DNA of 40,967 nt, from assembly GCA_002084135.1 (NCBI GenBank), contig MUIB01000139.1, forward strand, positions 1-40,967, in the 5' to 3' direction. Positions 29,852 to 38,247 of the stretch are shown here, piece by piece; position 1 is the stretch's first letter, and each line of letters opens with the position of its first letter. Both the position numbers and the translations under genes were made by a program. The DNA is from Spirochaeta sp. LUC14_002_19_P3 (lineage in GTDB: Bacteria; Spirochaetota; Spirochaetia; DSM-2461). The notes below the pieces were generated by a model. It made no database searches. It was not told the origin of the DNA and saw only the letters and a program-made list of their open reading frames with translations.

Positions 29852-30295
29852 TTACTTTCCTTCCAGGCACTTCTCCAGCGCATGCCAGGCCAGCGCGGCG
29901 CATTTTACCCGCAAAGGGAACTTTACCACCCCGCCGAGAGCGGCCAAATCCCCAAAGGCGTCAAGGCGTTCCGGCGGTGCTTCGCCGCGGAGAACGGCAA
30001 TGAATTCCGCAATGAATTGCCGCGCTTCGGCGGGAGTTTTGCCCGGCAGGCGTTCGCTCAGCAGGGATGCGGATGCCGTGCTTATGGCACAGCCATGCCC
30101 GTCGTGGCGGGCATCGCGGATAGTTCCGTCCGGGTTGAAAATAACTTCGATTTTAATGGAATCGCCGCAAGAGGGATTTTCGTGGAGGGTGCTGTCGTCA
30201 AGGTGGGACAAATCCGTGCGGTTGCGGGGATGCTTGTAATGATCGAGGATAATCTCCATGTAGAGGTTATCGAGGGCGGGGGTGGCGTGGTTCAT
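29852..30295 (-). CDS. sufU: SufU-type Fe-S cluster assembly / sulfur transfer protein
   Basis: 147 aa; LYMEIILDHYKHPRN, NPSCGDSIKIEV, DGHGCAISTASASLLSE; overlaps sufS by 4 nt. Confidence 0.94.
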   Translation of the reverse strand: MNHATPALDNLYMEIILDHYKHPRNRTDLSHLDDSTLHENPSCGDSIKIEVIFNPDGTIRDARHDGHGCAISTASASLLSERLPGKTPAEARQFIAEFIAVLRGEAPPERLDAFGDLAALGGVVKFPLRVKCAALAWHALEKCLEGK

Positions 30296-31527
30296 TTGAA
30301 ATACTCCTTTGCTTTGAGAATAGCATCAATTAGGCGATTTATGTCGCTTAGGGTGTTGTAAGGGGCCAGGGAGGCGCGGGCGGTGGAGGGAATCCCCATG
30401 CACCGCATGGCTGGCTGGGCGCAGTGGTGCCCTGAACGGATGGCGATGCCCTGGGTGTCGAGGAACTGCGCGGCATCATGGCTGTGGACACCTTCAATGT
30501 TAAAGGAAAAAACGCCGCGGCGGCGCTTTGGCTGGGAGGGGCCGTAGAGAGTTATGCCGCTCAGGGAGCTCAGGCGCTGAAAGGCATGGTTTTCCAACTC
30601 TTTTGCCCTGGTTTCCAGGCGCTCCATGCCGGTTTCGGCTATCCAGCCCAGGGCGGCAGCGAGTCCCACTGCGGCGGCGGGATTGGGGGTGCCTGCCTCG
30701 AATTTATAGGGTAGTTCGTTCCAGGTGGAGCGTTCCAGCTTTACGGAGGAAATCATTTCGCCGCCACTCTGCCAGGGGGGCATGCGCTCCAGCCACTTTT
30801 CCCTGCCCCACAGTACCCCGCAGCCCAGCGGGCCATAAATTTTATGAGCGCTGAAGGCAAGAAAATCCGCCCCGCTGGACATAGCCTCCTCCGGCAGATG
30901 CTGCACCGACTGTGCCGCATCCAGCACCAACGGAATATCCCGCTTTTTACACCACTTGGAAACCTCCCTTACCGGATTCACGGTTCCGAAGGCATTGGAA
31001 ACATGGACAAGCGAAACAATTTTCACTCTCTCGCTTCGCCCATCGCGTTCAAGAGTGTCCAAAAAATCCAGGTTGAGAGTGCTATCTTCCAGCACTGGAA
31101 TAAGAACCAGCTCCGCCCCTTTGCGGGCGGCCGCCTGCTGCCAGGGCACGAAGTTGGAATGATGCTCCAGAGTGCTGACAAGAATTATATCCCCTTCTTC
31201 TACAAGAAGTTCGCTAAGCGACCAGGCCAGAAGATTCAGGGCTTCGGTGGTTCCGCGGGTAAATATTACCTCGCGGGGTGTTTCGGCCCGCAGCCAGCGC
31301 TGAACGGTACTCCGTGCATCCTCAAAGGCTGCTGTGGAACGCTCGGCCAGGGAATAAAGGGCACGGTGAACGTTAGCATTGCTGTTCCGGTAGTAATTAT
31401 CCATCGCCGTGAGTACCTGTAGCGGCTTTTGAGTGCTGGCCGCGTTGTCCAGATAGGCCAGATTGGGATAATTCATGAGCAGGGGAAACTGCTCCCTGAT
31501 GCTGTCGTCAATGGGTGCTGTATTCAT
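30292..31527 (-). CDS. sufS: Cysteine desulfurase SufS
   Basis: 411 aa; YLDNAASTQKP, TRGTTEALNLLAWS, SAHKIYGPLGCGVLWG, RSGHHCAQP. Confidence 0.95.
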   Translation of the reverse strand: MNTAPIDDSIREQFPLLMNYPNLAYLDNAASTQKPLQVLTAMDNYYRNSNANVHRALYSLAERSTAAFEDARSTVQRWLRAETPREVIFTRGTTEALNLLAWSLSELLVEEGDIILVSTLEHHSNFVPWQQAAARKGAELVLIPVLEDSTLNLDFLDTLERDGRSERVKIVSLVHVSNAFGTVNPVREVSKWCKKRDIPLVLDAAQSVQHLPEEAMSSGADFLAFSAHKIYGPLGCGVLWGREKWLERMPPWQSGGEMISSVKLERSTWNELPYKFEAGTPNPAAAVGLAAALGWIAETGMERLETRAKELENHAFQRLSSLSGITLYGPSQPKRRRGVFSFNIEGVHSHDAAQFLDTQGIAIRSGHHCAQPAMRCMGIPSTARASLAPYNTLSDINRLIDAILKAKEYFK

Positions 31528-31677: not shown

Positions 31678-32205
31678 TTATCCAATTCTACGTACCAGGC
31701 GTTTAATTTCATCCTTAAAAGTATCTATAGGCAACAGTCCTGATTTATCCTTTGTGAGCTTGTAGGAAGCATTAGCATTTTTTTCCATACTAACCAAATT
31801 TCCAGCTTTTCCGGTTGTAACATCTGCTTTTGACCACACCCCAAACCTTAATGAAGAAGGAGATACTCCAAGGCATAATAATGCATCATAAGTTCTATGG
31901 TATCTTATATGATTAAATTGAAAATGATTATGAATATCTTCTGTCGCAGTTTTTAATTCAAATTTAATATTCATTATTTTTATATCCCATGGGCTTTGTG
32001 TTGCGTCTTGCCCGCTTTTTGTTTTCGGTAACTCATATTTTATTCCCAATTCACTACACAGCAGGATAATAAAGTCTTGACCAACAGAACCAACCTTTGT
32101 ATTTGATATTATCTTTATCTGTCCAAATAAGGCACCATCCCATTTTGAATCATTGTTATAATTAGAGAGAGCTTTTATAAATAAGTCTCTGTATCTTTCA
32201 AGCAT
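31678..32205 (-). CDS. Putative type II restriction endonuclease (PD-(D/E)XK-like)
   Basis: 175 aa; SPWDIKIMNIKFELKTATED fits D-x(n)-(E)xK; 8-nt overlap with adjacent DNA methyltransferase. Confidence 0.7.
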   Translation of the reverse strand: MLERYRDLFIKALSNYNNDSKWDGALFGQIKIISNTKVGSVGQDFIILLCSELGIKYELPKTKSGQDATQSPWDIKIMNIKFELKTATEDIHNHFQFNHIRYHRTYDALLCLGVSPSSLRFGVWSKADVTTGKAGNLVSMEKNANASYKLTKDKSGLLPIDTFKDEIKRLVRRIG

Positions 32206-33151
32206 CTACGTATCCCATATTTACCATAGCATTTTCTATATGATACATACTGATATGTCTACAATTATGTGTAGCCAAGTTACTATAATTCCTCCAGTCA
32301 ACGGTATATAAATCTTTTTCCACTTGTTTCTTGTCCTTTTTTATTACTATACCATACCCACATACATATTTAACCTTGTCAAAGGTTTTAACTGGTAATG
32401 GAGGCTCTGTATAAAATGTCCTTTGTAAAAAACAATCGGCTTCGGCTAATCTGCGTTGACCGCACAATCTTTCTTTTCTCATGTCTACCGTAAATAAATC
32501 TATCCATTCCTTGCACGTTTGTCTTTCTTTCTTTCTATTTTCACCCTTCCCCCATACTTGCCATAAGGCATTTACCTTAACATTTTTTCCATTAGGATTT
32601 AAAAAAGTATTATCTGGTAAATATTCTGAATATAGTAGTTTCATCCCTTTCACGCGATGTTTAGGGCTTCCTTTTCCATCGCTCTGAAAAGACATGGGCA
32701 ATATAAACCCCACGTATTCCGAGAATTGGGCAGCTTTGTTTAAAAATGAAAGAGCTAGCCAACCCCTATACCCAAAAGGAGGGTTCCCAATAACAATATA
32801 TTTTTTCTTTTTGATATGATTCCATGATAAAAAGTCTTCTTGAATAATCCCTTCTTTATAGGGAATTATATCAATACCTATTCTTTTGTCTTTAGGGAGT
32901 CTATCATAAAAAGCACACATTCCAGCAGATGGTTCTATAAAATGGAAATCATTAATATTGGTTTTTCCATCTTTTTCTACGATGTTTAGCAAAGATGAAT
33001 ATAAATATGCCGCTATATCAGGGTTTGTATAGAATTGATCTAATCCTGCCTTTTCCACATTAACCCATGATGGAACGTAAGAATTGTTTTTCCATTTGTC
33101 ATTTCTTACCTGTATATATGATTCAGGAAACCAATCAACCCCATTACACAT
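32198..33151 (-). CDS. DNA methyltransferase (N6-adenine type predicted)
   Basis: 317 aa; motif X-like LDQFYTNPDIAAYL, motif I FIEPSAGMCAF, motif IV NPPFG. Confidence 0.82.
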   Translation of the reverse strand: MCNGVDWFPESYIQVRNDKWKNNSYVPSWVNVEKAGLDQFYTNPDIAAYLYSSLLNIVEKDGKTNINDFHFIEPSAGMCAFYDRLPKDKRIGIDIIPYKEGIIQEDFLSWNHIKKKKYIVIGNPPFGYRGWLALSFLNKAAQFSEYVGFILPMSFQSDGKGSPKHRVKGMKLLYSEYLPDNTFLNPNGKNVKVNALWQVWGKGENRKKERQTCKEWIDLFTVDMRKERLCGQRRLAEADCFLQRTFYTEPPLPVKTFDKVKYVCGYGIVIKKDKKQVEKDLYTVDWRNYSNLATHNCRHISMYHIENAMVNMGYVDA

Positions 33152-33679: not shown

Positions 33680-34941
33680 ACAGTGCCCGCTTTGAGAGCC
33701 AATTCAAGATCGGTATGAAGCAGTTCGGCGGCATGGCCGCGCAGGTTTTTCAGCGTTTCGGCAAGAAAGCCCTCGGTAAGTGCCCTTTCGGCCTCCACGG
33801 GGGGAAAGCCCCGGCTCTGGAGGTAGAAGAGCTGAGCACTGTCCAGCTTGCCGCTGGTGGAACCATGGCTGCATTTCACATCGTCGGTAAGAATGTTGAG
33901 CTGGGGCAGGGAGTCCGCACGGGCACCATCGCCAAGGAGCAGGTTGTTGTTGGTAAGGTAGGCATCCGTTTTCGCGGCATCGTGCTGCACCTGAATTAAG
34001 CCCTGATACACACTCCAGCCTCCGGGATAAACCGCCCCCTTGTAGAGGGCATCCGACACCGCCCTGGGTGCCCGGTGATCCTGAAGAGTGCCAATGTCTA
34101 TGTGCTGATCTTTTCCCGCCAGGTACAGGCCGTTGAGCCGGATTTCAGAGCCTTCGCCGTCGAGTATGGCGGAGGTGTGCGTCTTTACCAGCGATGAGCC
34201 GGTATGGGACTCCATAAAGAGGACAAGGGCATCCCGCTCGGCCTGAAAAAGGTTGTTCAAAAAGAATATCATCTCCCCTTTCAGCTTTTGTCTTAAGGTA
34301 ACCCGCAACTTGCTGTTCGCTTCGGCGGTGCCGGTTATGCCGGCGTTTACAACCGGCCGCTGCCCCTGAAGAGAAGCCTCTGAAGCATGCAGAGACCAGA
34401 TTATTTCCGCTTCGCTGCCGCCGCCGGCCTCAATGTGAACATGGGGCGCACTGAACAGATTTTTTCCATCGGCGGAGAGTGTTTCCTCGATAAGAATCGG
34501 CTTGTTCAGACATGCCCCTTTCGGTATTTGTACAATGGCAGCGCCGGGCGTGTTCCGCCAGTGCCATGCCTGTACCCTATCGGGATTATGGAAAAGATGG
34601 TTTTCCAATGCCTCCAAACCAGCGGGAAAATTTTCCGCGCTCTCCCAGAATGCCTTCACCCCGGTGGCGCGGGCCTCTTCGGAAACATATATACTCTGGG
34701 GGCATCCCGCCGAAGTGATAATGCGGACAAAGCAAGTTTCGGCATCCTGTGCCCCGGCAGGGGATAATTTGGACGCATCGATAAGGGAAGTGCCGGGAGG
34801 GGGTGAAGCCGCAGCGGCATCCAGTGTGCCCTTAGGGAGCAGCCGCTCCAGATGGGTGCGCCGCCAGGCTTCATTATCGGGGCCGGGCCATGGAAGGCTA
34901 TCGAACAGTTTGGCCGCTTTGGCCGACAGGTTATTCTTCAT
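33664..34941 (-). CDS. sufD: Fe-S cluster assembly protein SufD
   Basis: 425 aa; C-terminal DDVKCSHGSTSGKLDSAQLFYLQSRG; between sufB and Rieske gene. Confidence 0.94.
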   Translation of the reverse strand: MKNNLSAKAAKLFDSLPWPGPDNEAWRRTHLERLLPKGTLDAAAASPPPGTSLIDASKLSPAGAQDAETCFVRIITSAGCPQSIYVSEEARATGVKAFWESAENFPAGLEALENHLFHNPDRVQAWHWRNTPGAAIVQIPKGACLNKPILIEETLSADGKNLFSAPHVHIEAGGGSEAEIIWSLHASEASLQGQRPVVNAGITGTAEANSKLRVTLRQKLKGEMIFFLNNLFQAERDALVLFMESHTGSSLVKTHTSAILDGEGSEIRLNGLYLAGKDQHIDIGTLQDHRAPRAVSDALYKGAVYPGGWSVYQGLIQVQHDAAKTDAYLTNNNLLLGDGARADSLPQLNILTDDVKCSHGSTSGKLDSAQLFYLQSRGFPPVEAERALTEGFLAETLKNLRGHAAELLHTDLELALKAGTVWADG

Positions 34942-36347
34942 TATCCAACACTCCCTTCCATCTCCAGCTCAATCAGACGGTTCAGTTCCACCGCATACTC
35001 CATGGGGAGCTGCTTCACCAGGGGATCCAGAAAGCCGTTGACTATCATCATAGAGGCCTCCTCCTCGGTGAGCCCCCGCGACATGAGATAAAACAGCTGA
35101 TCCTCGCTGATGCGGCTTACCCGCGCTTCGTGCTCCATAGACACGTCGTCGGATTCTATTTCCATATACGGATACGTTTTGCTCTTGGAGTCGCGGTCGA
35201 GAATCAAGGCATCGCAAACAACGTGGCTCTTTACGTTCTTCAAATTTTCGGCTATTTTGACCAACCCGCGGTAGGTGGCGGTGCCGCCATCTTTGCTGAT
35301 GGACTTGGAGGTGATAACGCTGGAGGTGTTGGAAGCGGTATGAACCATTTTGCCGCCGGTATCCTGATCCTGCCCCTTGCCCCCGAAGGCGATGGAGAGG
35401 ACTTCGCCGTGGGCACCTTCACCCATGAGATACACCGCCGGGTACTTCATGGTGCGCTTGGAACCGATATTGCCGTCTACCCACTCCACGGTGGCGCCTT
35501 CTTTGGCTACGGCGCGCTTGGTTACAAGATTGTACACATCTCCCGACCAGTTCTGAATTGTGGAGTAGCGCACCCTGGCTCCCTTTTCGGCGACAATTTC
35601 AACCACGGCACTGTGCAGGGAATCGGTGGTGTAAACCGGTGCGGTACAGCCTTCAATGTAGTGCACAAAGCTGTTCTCATCGGCAATAATAAGCGTTCGC
35701 TCAAACTGACCGAAATTCTCCGAGTTGATGCGGAAATAGGCCTGGAGCGGAATTTCCACCCTAATGTTGGGCGGAACATAAATAAAACTCCCCCCCGACC
35801 ACACCGCCGTGTTCAGCGCGGCGAATTTATTGTCGTTAAAGGGAATAATGGTGCCGAAATACTTTCGCACAATATCGGGATGCTTTGCCACGGCCTGCTC
35901 AGGGCTTAAAAACAGCACGCCCTGTTTTTCCAGTTCTTCTTTAATAGAATGATACACCACTTCGGAATCGTACTGAGCGCCTACCCCGGCCAGGAAATTC
36001 TTCTCCGCTTCGGGCAGCCCCAGCCTGTCGTAGGTGGCCAGTATGTCTTCTGGCAGGTCTTTCCAGGATTTTACGGCCTGATTGGCTGGTTTGGCGTAGT
36101 AGTAAATGTTATCGAAATCAATGTCGCCTATTTCAGCACCCCAGGCGGGCATGGGCTTGCGCTGGAAGGCTTTCAGACCGCGCAGGCGGTATTCCAGCAT
36201 CCATTCCGGTTCATTCTTCTGGGCACTGATGGCCCGCACGATATCTTCACTCAAGCCCTTGTCCGGTTTGAAGACGGACTTGTCGGGAAAGGAAAACCCG
36301 TATTTGTAATCCGATAATCCGGCTACGGGTGCTTCTGCCTGATTCAT
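34941..36347 (-). CDS. sufB: Fe-S cluster assembly protein SufB
   Basis: 468 aa; [68 protein letters not shown]. Confidence 0.97.
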
Positions 36348-37090
36348 TTCTTCATCTCCTTCACCCAGTCGTAGCCCCGCGCTTCAAGCTCGTTCACAAT
36401 ATCCGGCCCGCCGGAAAGCACAATGTGCCCCTCTACCATAACATGCACCTTATCGGGCTTCACATAATCCAGTATGCGCTGGTAGTGGGTAATAACCAGA
36501 GAGCCGAATTTTCCGCCTCTCAGCTTGTTCACCCCCTTGGCCACAATCCGCAGCGCGTCTATGTCCAGCCCGGAATCCGTTTCGTCCAGAACCGCGAAGT
36601 TTGGATTGAGCATTAGCATCTGAAGAATTTCCATCCGCTTCTTTTCGCCCCCGGAAAATCCCTCGTTCAGATAGCGGTTAATAAAACCCTGATCCATTCC
36701 CATAAAGTCCATGGCACTACGCAGCTCTGTAATGTAACCGCTCACATTGAATTTCCCTTCCTCGCCCCGGCGCAGTTCCACCGCCCGCTTCAGGAATTTC
36801 CCTACCGTAATACCGGGCACTTCCACCGGATACTGAAAGGCCAGAAAGAAGCCGGCCCGCGCCCGCTCATGGGCCTCCAGCTCGGTTAAATCCACATTGC
36901 CCATTGCAATGGTACCCGCTGTCATCTCATACTGCGGATGTCCGGCCAGCACATTCGCCAGCGTACTCTTGCCTGATCCATTCGGCCCCATCAGCGCATG
37001 CACCTCGCCGCTGGGCACTTCTAAACTAATCCCTTTCAAAATCTCCTTGTCCGGCAGCCCGGCCTTGAGATTGGTAATTTTCAGATTCAC
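36344..37090 (-). CDS. sufC: Fe-S cluster assembly ATPase SufC
   Basis: 248 aa ABC ATPase; [44 protein letters not shown]. Confidence 0.97.
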
Positions 37091-37110
37091 TTCTATTCTC
37101 CTTAAATGCG

Positions 37111-37155
37111 ACTATTATGGTAGTATAAGATAAAGGCACTGCGATTTTTTGTCAA
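37111..37155 (-). promoter_or_regulatory. Putative sufC promoter with Rrf2-type operator
   Basis: Minus strand TTGACA (37150-37155)-N17-TATCTT (37127-37132) followed by ATACTACCATAATAGTCG; matches the rrf2 upstream unit. Confidence 0.75.
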
Positions 37156-37181
37156 GGCTCGTGTCTTGCGGGCACAATAAA

Positions 37182-37197
37182 CCTTTTAGAGGTGCCC
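37182..37197. repeat. Possible terminal remnant of the MITE-like repeat
   Basis: CCTTTTAGAGGTGCCC matches the right end of the repeat; a GGGCAC at 37170-37175 faces it. Confidence 0.4.
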
Positions 37198-37229
37198 TTT
37201 AGCAACTGGCCTGCTGCGCCCGGCGCCAG

Positions 37230-37397
37230 CGCGTAAGGGATGCGCAAGGTGCAAAGCAGCCTGTCCAGCCGTTTCAGGGGGCAGTGATTCTATACTGCGG
37301 CAAATATATCTTAAGCGTTTACTGGCTGGACAGGCCGGAGCGTTAGCGGAGCCTGGAGCAGCCCGGCCCGGCCGCTGAAAGCGGGCGGGTTACGCCC
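37230..37397 (-). repeat. GC-rich structured intergenic element, copy B
   Basis: Minus strand begins GGGCGTAACCCGCC and ends GCGCATCCCTTACGC, paralleling copy A; internal perfect 12-bp inverted repeat GCCTGTCCAGCC (37259-37270)/GGCTGGACAGGC (37324-37335). Confidence 0.65.
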
Positions 37398-37448
37398 AAA
37401 GGTATAAACTCCAGGGAAAATACTCTCTTCCCTTTAGCGTTTCACGTC

Positions 37449-37754
37449 CTATATCGGATAGCCCATGAGCAGGCGGGCGTTTTCGCTCATCATGTCCTGG
37501 CTCCACGGGGGATACCAGACAAGGTTCACCCGGACGGCTTCCACATCGGTTTGAGTTTTTACTTGATGCTCAATATCCGAGGCTATCATATCGCTCATGG
37601 GGCAGCCGGGGTAGGTGAGGGTAAAGTCCACTTCGGCAATGTTGTCTTCATTTACCTGCGCCCGGTAAACGAGTCCCAAATCCACAATGTTCATGTTCAG
37701 TTCCGGGTCTATCACGTCGTAAAGGGCGTCTTTTACATCTTGATCGCTGGCCAT
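37449..37754 (-). CDS. sufT: MIP18/DUF59-family Fe-S assembly factor (SufT-like)
   Basis: 101 aa; VIDPELNMNIVDLGLVY...LTYPGCPMSDMIASDIE...VNLVWYPPWSQDMMSE. Confidence 0.88.
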   Translation of the reverse strand: MASDQDVKDALYDVIDPELNMNIVDLGLVYRAQVNEDNIAEVDFTLTYPGCPMSDMIASDIEHQVKTQTDVEAVRVNLVWYPPWSQDMMSENARLLMGYPI

Positions 37755-38186
37755 TTATATTCCTTCTATGAATTTAACTTCTGGCTGAGTAATTTCAGCC
37801 AGTGTGGTGTTCTCCACGAAGTGTATCCATTTGTTCTGAAACACTTCGATAATCGGTTTTATCGTACAGCCGCAGTTCTCCTGCACGCAGTTTCCGTCTT
37901 CGCTAAGGCAGTCTGCGATGCGTTCGGTGCCTCGTACGGCTTGAATAACACGCCCAAGGTTCACGTCGGCGGGACTGAGTGCCAGGCTGTAGCCGCCTTG
38001 AGAGCCTTTCAAGGAGTTAAGAATTCCGTCAGCACCAAGTTTTTGCAGTATCCGCGCCAGGAGCTTGTAGGGTATGAGGTAGCGATCCGATAGCTCCCGT
38101 GCGGAAAGAATTTCATCCGCCGCAAGACGGCTTAACTCCACGAGAGCGATGAGCGCGTATTCAATGTCCTTGTTAAAGCGGAACAT
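37755..38186 (-). CDS. Rrf2-family transcriptional regulator (IscR/SufR-like, Cys-containing)
   Basis: 143 aa; N-terminal winged HTH (YALIALVELSRLAADEILSARELSDRYLIPYKLLARILQKL), Cys cluster CLSEDGNCVQENCGC. Confidence 0.92.
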   Translation of the reverse strand: MFRFNKDIEYALIALVELSRLAADEILSARELSDRYLIPYKLLARILQKLGADGILNSLKGSQGGYSLALSPADVNLGRVIQAVRGTERIADCLSEDGNCVQENCGCTIKPIIEVFQNKWIHFVENTTLAEITQPEVKFIEGI

Positions 38187-38201
38187 TTGGTACCTTATAC
38201 G

Positions 38202-38247
38202 ACTATTATGATAGTATTAAAATAGCTGGGGGTGAATTTTTTGTCAA
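38202..38247 (-). promoter_or_regulatory. Putative rrf2-sufT promoter with operator
   Basis: Minus strand TTGACA (38242-38247)-N17-TATTTT (38219-38224) followed by ATACTATCATAATAGTCG; ACTAT-N4-ATAGT inverted repeat at 38202-38215. Confidence 0.78.

What the first reader, a model, noticed from the sequence alone, without database searches (positions are those of the whole stretch)
37111..38247. Duplicated promoter/operator unit upstream of both rrf2-sufT and sufC: candidate Rrf2 Fe-S regulon operator
On the minus strand both genes are preceded by the same architecture: TTGACA-N17-TATTTT/TATCTT followed directly by ATACTA(T/C)CATAATAGTCG, then the start codon 15-20 nt later. The 18-mer differs at one base while the flanking sequence is unrelated, and it carries an ACTAT-N4-ATAGT inverted repeat placed around the expected transcription start. 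Established knowledge: Rrf2 proteins such as IscR and SufR repress Fe-S assembly operons and often themselves. Inference: this Cys-containing Rrf2 protein autoregulates and controls the suf operon through this site, which does not obviously match the E. coli IscR consensus as I remember it.
Basis: partly seen in the sequence, partly recalled or inferred. Interest (0 to 1): 0.62.

Follow-up and report, generated by a model that had tools for sequence, protein, structure and literature searches.

The report
Duplicated switch for iron-sulfur assembly genes
Two promoters in front of the iron-sulfur-cluster assembly genes of this bacterium carry the same protein-binding site, which relatives keep in the same place, so one iron-sulfur-sensing repressor probably controls both itself and the whole assembly operon; the principle is known, but the site, its duplication and its altered half-sites are new.

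Summary
Both 18-mers lie on the minus strand at 37109-37126 and 38200-38217, directly behind TTGACA-N17-TATTTT/TATCTT. Neither is expected by chance, and they are the only exact copies in the 1.95-Mb genome (77.5% complete).

Six genus-mates and about ten further families of the class carry a related dyad at the same spot before the orthologous rrf2-suf operon. The true element is a 25-bp dyad (window 38195-38219 and 37104-37128). Class consensus is AAATACGAC-N7-GTCGTATTT, genus form TAATACTAC-N7-GTAGTATTA. Its symmetrical positions covary.

The dyad starts at the end of the -10 and should cover the transcription start. The Rrf2 protein has three invariant cysteines, and only one Rrf2 gene was detected in the genome. 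The likely mechanism is Fe-S-dependent repression of rrf2-sufT and, through a lineage-specific second copy, of sufCBD and downstream genes.

This works like Myxococcus RisR (GAC-N7-GTC) and resembles the IscR type-1 core, but is not IscR. In relatives related dyads also precede nifS-nifU, an A-type carrier and superoxide dismutase.

The parts
38195..38219 (-). 25-bp operator dyad of rrf2-sufT: TAATACTATC-ATAAT-AGTCGTATAA
   Evidence: R1 match 26.2 bits, E 0.0017 in the window; R2 match E 4.7e-4 in the genome; orthologous dyads at the same place in relatives
37104..37128 (-). 25-bp operator dyad of sufC: TTATACTACC-ATAAT-AGTCGCATTT
   Evidence: R1 match 22.2 bits, E 0.018 in the window; R2 match E 0.0014 in the genome
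38242..38247 (-). -35 hexamer TTGACA of the rrf2 promoter
   Evidence: TTGAC lies 23-36 nt upstream of the operator in all 23 aligned sites, most often 27-29
38219..38224 (-). -10 hexamer TATTTT of the rrf2 promoter; its last base is operator position 1
37150..37155 (-). -35 hexamer TTGACA of the sufC promoter
37127..37132 (-). -10 hexamer TATCTT of the sufC promoter, overlapping operator positions 1-2
37755..38186 (-). rrf2: Rrf2-family regulator, 143 aa, ligand-type Cys93, Cys100, Cys107
   Evidence: PF02082 E 8.7e-29; Cys invariant in 24 homologues; fold matches RsrR, IscR, NsrR, CymR
37449..37754 (-). sufT (MIP18/FeS_assembly_P family)
   Evidence: PF01883; TIGR03406/TIGR02945 hits below cut-off
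37091..37448 (-). 358-bp spacer between sufT and sufC, present only in this genome; holds the second promoter/operator and short repeat-like pieces
   Evidence: sufT-sufC gap about 14-94 bp in genus-mates; short pieces recur on two other contigs
36344..37090 (-). sufC
   Evidence: TIGR01978, 332 bits over cut-off 212.8
34941..36347 (-). sufB
   Evidence: TIGR01980, 706 bits
33664..34941 (-). sufD
   Evidence: SUFBD_core PF01458
33347..33679 (-). Rieske-type ferredoxin of the suf operon
   Evidence: PF00355; conserved in the operon of relatives
30292..31527 (-). sufS
   Evidence: TIGR01979, 507 bits
29852..30295 (-). sufU
   Evidence: TIGR01994

Best explanation
The two motifs are operators of the Rrf2 protein encoded at 37755-38186. 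A homodimer loaded with an Fe-S cluster on its three cysteines binds a 25-bp dyad that begins at the end of the -10 box and covers the transcription start. It thereby blocks RNA polymerase at both the rrf2-sufT and the sufC promoters. When Fe-S clusters become scarce (iron limitation, oxidation), the apo-protein releases, and the regulator and the SUF assembly machinery are made. In relatives rrf2-sufT-sufCBD is one operon with one such promoter. In this lineage the operon was split by a 358-bp spacer, and the promoter-operator unit was copied in front of sufC, keeping both halves under one regulator. Shown by computation: the sites, their conservation, dyad covariation, promoter geometry, gene linkage and the cysteines. 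Inferred: binding by this protein, repression rather than activation, cluster sensing, and the origin of the second copy by duplication.
For: (a) Two sites only, in the genome's two suf promoters. (b) A dyad at the same place before rrf2 in six genus-mates and other families of the class, with TTGAC most often 27-29 nt upstream. (c) Dyad covariation: 26 two-sided changes against 11.5 in shuffles (0/500), and covariation score 0.326 against 0.015-0.111 for slid versions. (d) Sites not used for training: rrf2-sufT-sufC of G013, rrf2 of G043 and G124, rrf2-sufS of G235, nifS-nifU of G010, G015 and G019. (e) In 392 kb of suf-region DNA, 16 of 18 non-training matches of 12 bits or more lie at rrf2 or suf promoters (positions read). 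(f) Only one Rrf2 gene detected in G000. (g) Cys93, 100 and 107 invariant; fold like RsrR, IscR and NsrR. (h) The two window copies share TTGACAAAAAAT and a right half (ATAATAGTCG) that no genus-mate has, as expected of a recent duplication. (i) A working precedent: RisR represses suf and isc through GAC-N7-GTC, and its isc site covers the -10 and the start (PMC9973013).
Against: No binding, expression or 5'-end data exist. The window's own copies are imperfect dyads (left half genus-type, right half class-type). Several class members with sufT-sufC but no adjacent rrf2 also have related dyads, so the partner protein is not proven by linkage alone; another Rrf2 protein could act there. The genome's A-type carrier gene has no site. 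The genome is 77.5% complete, so further Rrf2 genes or sites may be missing. Whether an occupied site represses or activates cannot be read from sequence, although its place over the start favours repression.
Confidence: 0.85

Rival explanations
1. The shared 18-mer is only a promoter feature (discriminator, extended -10 or a special sigma-factor box), not an operator.
For: It abuts the -10 in both promoters, and TTGAC precedes every aligned site.
Against: The symmetrical positions covary over 10 base pairs. The distance from TTGAC varies between 23 and 36 nt. A dyad lies upstream of the -35 in G043, and G003 and G007 have a second dyad upstream of it.
Confidence: 0.05
2. The dyad is an RNA hairpin in the leader (attenuator, thermometer or riboswitch).
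For: The inverted repeat could be partly transcribed.
Against: The expected start lies inside the dyad. The leaders fold no better than shuffles, z 0.38 and 0.54. No Rfam family matches up to E 1. Some sites lie upstream of the -35.
Confidence: 0.02
3. A different metal or redox regulator (Fur/PerR type), or another Rrf2 protein encoded in trans, binds the site.
For: Related dyads occur at suf promoters that lack an adjacent rrf2 gene. In relatives dyads also occur near superoxide dismutase and next to a periplasmic-binding-protein transporter that I guess carries iron.
Against: Core GAC-N7-GTC is the footprinted RisR site and the IscR type-1 core. The site is anchored to rrf2 genes in many families. 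One Rrf2 gene was detected in G000. The half-site change in the genus coincides with a changed recognition helix in this very protein.
Confidence: 0.1
4. Activation rather than repression: apo- or holo-Rrf2 bound here stimulates suf, as E. coli IscR does at its type-2 site.
For: E. coli IscR activates suf from a type-2 site (described in PMC9973013). Some relatives have an additional dyad upstream of the -35.
Against: In the window the only sites overlap the end of the -10 and the expected start, where bound proteins block polymerase.
Confidence: 0.08

Closest known systems
RisR of Myxococcus xanthus (PMC9973013)
   Same: Rrf2 protein with three Cys, first gene of a suf operon that includes sufT; core GAC-N7-GTC flanked by AT-rich DNA; site over the -10/start at one promoter; represses its own operon and a second Fe-S operon.
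   Different: RisR governs suf and a separate isc operon. Here the two targets are halves of one former operon. Outer arms differ (ATAC/GTAT, against T[T/G]GAC/GTCC[T/A]), and the genus has TAC-N7-GTA. Membership of the RisR subfamily (IS6) was not tested.
E. coli IscR with type-1 site ATASYYGACTRWWWYAGTCRRSTAT (PMC6599224)
   Same: 25-bp dyad with the same centre; the class consensus holds the 13-bp core GACTRWWWYAGTC; autoregulation of an Fe-S operon.
   Different: Outer ATA/TAT blocks lie 2 bp nearer the centre. Window sites match only 15/25 and 17/25 positions (counted by hand). The His107 ligand is Lys. Score is far below the IscR equivalog cut-off (61.6 against 207.55).
NsrR, RsrR, CymR and RirA
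   Same: Same superfamily and fold.
   Different: Below the equivalog cut-offs (RsrR has no model there). Not linked to suf in the same way; operators differ (general knowledge).

Membership tests
Rrf2 superfamily | Rrf2 domain above the curated cut-off | tested here: met
   PF02082 100.8 bits (cut-off 30), TIGR00738 97.2 bits (cut-off 73.3)
Rrf2 superfamily | winged helix plus dimerisation helix fold | tested here: met
   AlphaFold model pLDDT 84.5; Foldseek best matches RsrR, CymR, IscR, NsrR
Fe-S-binding Rrf2 regulators | three cysteine ligands | tested here: met
   Cys93, Cys100 and Cys107 invariant in 24 homologues
Fe-S-binding Rrf2 regulators | bound Fe-S cluster that controls DNA binding | not testable with these tools
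   needs purified protein
IscR (TIGR02010) | score above the equivalog cut-off | tested here: not met
   61.6 against 207.55 bits
IscR (TIGR02010) | (Cys)3(His)1 ligands, His107 | tested here: not met
   Lys at the His107 position
IscR (TIGR02010) | type-1 25-bp consensus in its promoter | tested here: not met
   15/25 and 17/25 positions by hand; core partly shared, outer blocks displaced
RisR-like suf/isc regulator | rrf2 first in a suf operon with sufT | tested here: met
   rrf2-sufT-sufC-B-D-Rieske-sufS-sufU
RisR-like suf/isc regulator | operator core GAC-N7-GTC | tested here: inconclusive
   met by most class members outside the genus; in the window the right half is GTC, the left half TAT or TAC
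RisR-like suf/isc regulator | belongs to phylogenetic group IS6 | not tested
   RisR sequence was not obtained with the tools used
SUF regulator TIGR02944 | score above the equivalog cut-off | tested here: not met
   61 against 110.65 bits
SufR (DeoR/ArsR-like) | winged-helix domain of that family | tested here: not met
   only Rrf2 found in Pfam

The most novel reading that the evidence does not exclude
In this genus the operator half-site changed from GAC to TAC on both arms together with the recognition helix of its own regulator. The residue aligned with E. coli IscR Gln44 is Lys in all 17 GAC/GAT-operator relatives tabulated, but Arg (Leu once) in the genus, and the Ser40 equivalent became Lys. 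The window genome is a mixed state with one old-type and one new-type half, and its operator-promoter unit was copied to hold a split operon under one control. This would be a natural specificity switch caught in a set of living relatives.
Probability: 0.4. Interest if true: 0.5.

Novelty: new member of a known kind. Interest (0 to 1): 0.42.

Why it matters
It gives a concrete, testable operator and a small candidate regulon (suf, nifS-nifU, A-type carrier, superoxide dismutase) for Fe-S homeostasis in a group, probably spirochaetes, where I found no described Rrf2 regulon. It extends the GAC-N7-GTC site of RisR and the IscR type-1 core to another group of bacteria. It also offers a set of closely related regulator-operator pairs in which recognition helix and half-site change together.

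Tried and rejected
Plain pattern search of the genome for more sites: only chance-level 3-mismatch hits. RNA leader element: rejected. An intended negative control, suf operons without adjacent rrf2, failed as a control, because many of them carry related dyads. Naming the organism: the one genome-contig scan returned only a weak Fretibacterium homologue. A TrpS comparison with PDB for a class-mate was not decisive, so 'Spirochaetia' is inference from a 917-kb Borrelia-like chromosome in the class. The weak G000 sites C57 and C37 (E 1.25 and 1.56) and the PadR-linked G005 site were taken as chance or unrelated.

Full report
Observation. The two 18-mers and the promoter hexamers are as described. 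With up to 3 mismatches the motif occurs twice in the window and never in 100 shuffles. In the whole genome (G000, 1.95 Mb in 177 contigs, 77.5% complete) these are the only exact copies; looser hits are at the level of the reversed-pattern control. The 18-mer ends 13 nt before the rrf2 ATG and 18 nt before the sufC GTG.

Genes. 37755-38186 (-) is an Rrf2-family regulator (PF02082, E 8.7e-29). It is followed by sufT, then after a 358-bp gap sufC, sufB, sufD, a Rieske ferredoxin, sufS and sufU. The regulator is below every equivalog cut-off (IscR, NsrR, CymR, RirA, suf_reg_Xantho). A model built on 24 homologues has the Rrf2 fold, closest to RsrR, CymR, IscR and NsrR. Cys93, Cys100 and Cys107 are invariant in all 24. 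The position of the IscR His107 ligand is Lys. It is the only Rrf2 match found in G000.

Conservation. Orthologues with 62-69% identity occur in six genus-mates, and more distant ones across the class. Upstream of nearly all of them, just behind a TTGAC / -10 pair, is a dyad. In the genus it is TAATACTAC-N7-GTAGTATTA, elsewhere AAATACGAC-N7-GTCGTATTT or AAATAGGAT-N7-GTCCTATTT. Aligned, the 23 sites (A1) give a 25-bp element. The window versions are TAATACTATCATAATAGTCGTATAA (38195-38219) and TTATACTACCATAATAGTCGCATTT (37104-37128).

Symmetry test. Pairing positions i and 26-i, 84.3% of cells are complementary (shuffles 72.8, 0/500). There are 26 two-sided changes (shuffles 11.5, 0/500), and the covariation score is 0.326. 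Because both arms change together, a symmetrical protein dimer reading DNA is the natural explanation. The relatedness of the sequences inflates such counts, so I weigh the slid controls more than the shuffles.

Promoter geometry. TTGAC stands 27-29 nt before operator position 1 in most of the 23 A1 sites, and 23-36 nt in all. In the window the operator starts at the last base of the -10 (rrf2) or in its last two bases (sufC), and so should cover the start site. That is where a bound protein would block polymerase. RisR covers most of the -10 and the start in the M. xanthus isc promoter (PMC9973013).

Genome-wide specificity. A covariance model of the 25-bp dyad (R1) was run over 148 class genomes, and its best matches are mostly rrf2-suf promoters. 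Sites that were not in the training set include rrf2-sufT-sufC of G013, the rrf2 genes of G043 and G124, rrf2-sufS of G235 found in a later run, and the nifS-nifU operon of three genomes of genus g3 (G010, G015, G019). In 392 kb of fetched suf-region DNA, 16 of 18 non-training matches of 12 bits or more lie at rrf2 or suf promoters (by comparing positions). A genus-only model (R2) finds just the two window sites with good E-values in G000, 4.7e-4 and 1.4e-3; the next place is at 1.25.

Wider regulon in relatives. In genus-mates dyads precede an A-type Fe-S carrier (G008, 20.7 bits; weaker in G007), Fe/Mn superoxide dismutase (G007, 27.3 bits; G003, 18.3 bits), nifS-nifU (weaker dyads at a constant distance from the start codon in most genus-mates; G003 and G004 score low in the gapless matrix but show the dyad by eye), an acyl-CoA dehydrogenase-like gene (two genomes) and a D-lactate-dehydrogenase-like gene. 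Families are from Pfam. G000's own A-type carrier gene has no site, and no superoxide dismutase or nifS match was found in G000 at the thresholds used. In this genome the detectable regulon is therefore suf alone.

Why two copies. In genus-mates rrf2, sufT and sufC are contiguous, with about 14-94 bp between sufT and sufC. Only G000 has the 358-bp spacer, which contains short pieces found on two other contigs. The two G000 units share TTGACAAAAAAT and a right half (ATAATAGTCG) that no genus-mate has. I infer that the promoter-operator unit was duplicated when, or after, the operon was split.

Recognition helix. Aligned to E. coli IscR, the Gln44 position is Lys in all 17 relatives tabulated that have GAC/GAT-type operators, but Arg in six and Leu in one member of this genus, whose operators are TAC-type (CAC once). 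The Ser40 position is Lys in the genus and in none of those 17. Structures show that IscR Glu43 and Gln44 contact bases and that the central 7 bp are not read (PMC9338935), which fits the N7 spacer. This is one evolutionary change in one clade, so it is a hypothesis and not a statistical result.

Comparison with known systems. It works like RisR and like IscR at type-1 sites. The class consensus contains the IscR type-1 core, but the ATA/TAT blocks lie 2 bp closer to the centre. It is not IscR by score, by the fourth ligand or by site. RisR membership is plausible but untested. I found no paper describing an Rrf2 regulon in spirochaetes in the held library; subscription journals are not covered.

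Limits. No binding or expression data. Suf operons without adjacent rrf2 in the class have related dyads, some close to the IscR type-1 form, so other Rrf2 proteins may act in trans there. The taxon is inferred.

Noticed in passing
window 31678-33151 (-): A type II restriction endonuclease (31678-32205) and methyltransferase (32198-33151) pair sits inside the suf operon between the Rieske gene and sufS; in the genus-mates examined those two genes are adjacent.
   Followed up: partly
L087-L118, upstream of sufT: Suf operons without an adjacent rrf2 carry related dyads, some close to the E. coli IscR type-1 form, e.g. ATACCTGACCTATTTAGTAAGGTAT in L100. The regulator there is unknown.
   Followed up: partly
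L038:1972-1996, L041 near 7779, L055 near 5841, L105 near 1654: Second dyads near or upstream of the -35 of rrf2 promoters, suggesting tandem operators in several relatives.
   Followed up: no
L206 (G276:C1:2822571-2822595): A near-perfect genus-type dyad ATATACTACTAATTTGGTAGTATAT upstream of a large ORF, possibly pyruvate dehydrogenase E1 (my guess from the sequence), in a distant class member.
   Followed up: no
L172:1501-1525 (G007:C269): A dyad between an alpha/beta hydrolase gene and a periplasmic-binding-protein ABC transporter that may carry iron (my guess from the sequence; Pfam says only solute-binding).
   Followed up: no
window 37160-37448: The spacer between sufT and sufC holds a 12-bp perfect inverted repeat (37259-37270 / 37324-37335) and pieces recurring on contigs C157 and C162, possibly a small mobile or repeat element.
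   Followed up: partly
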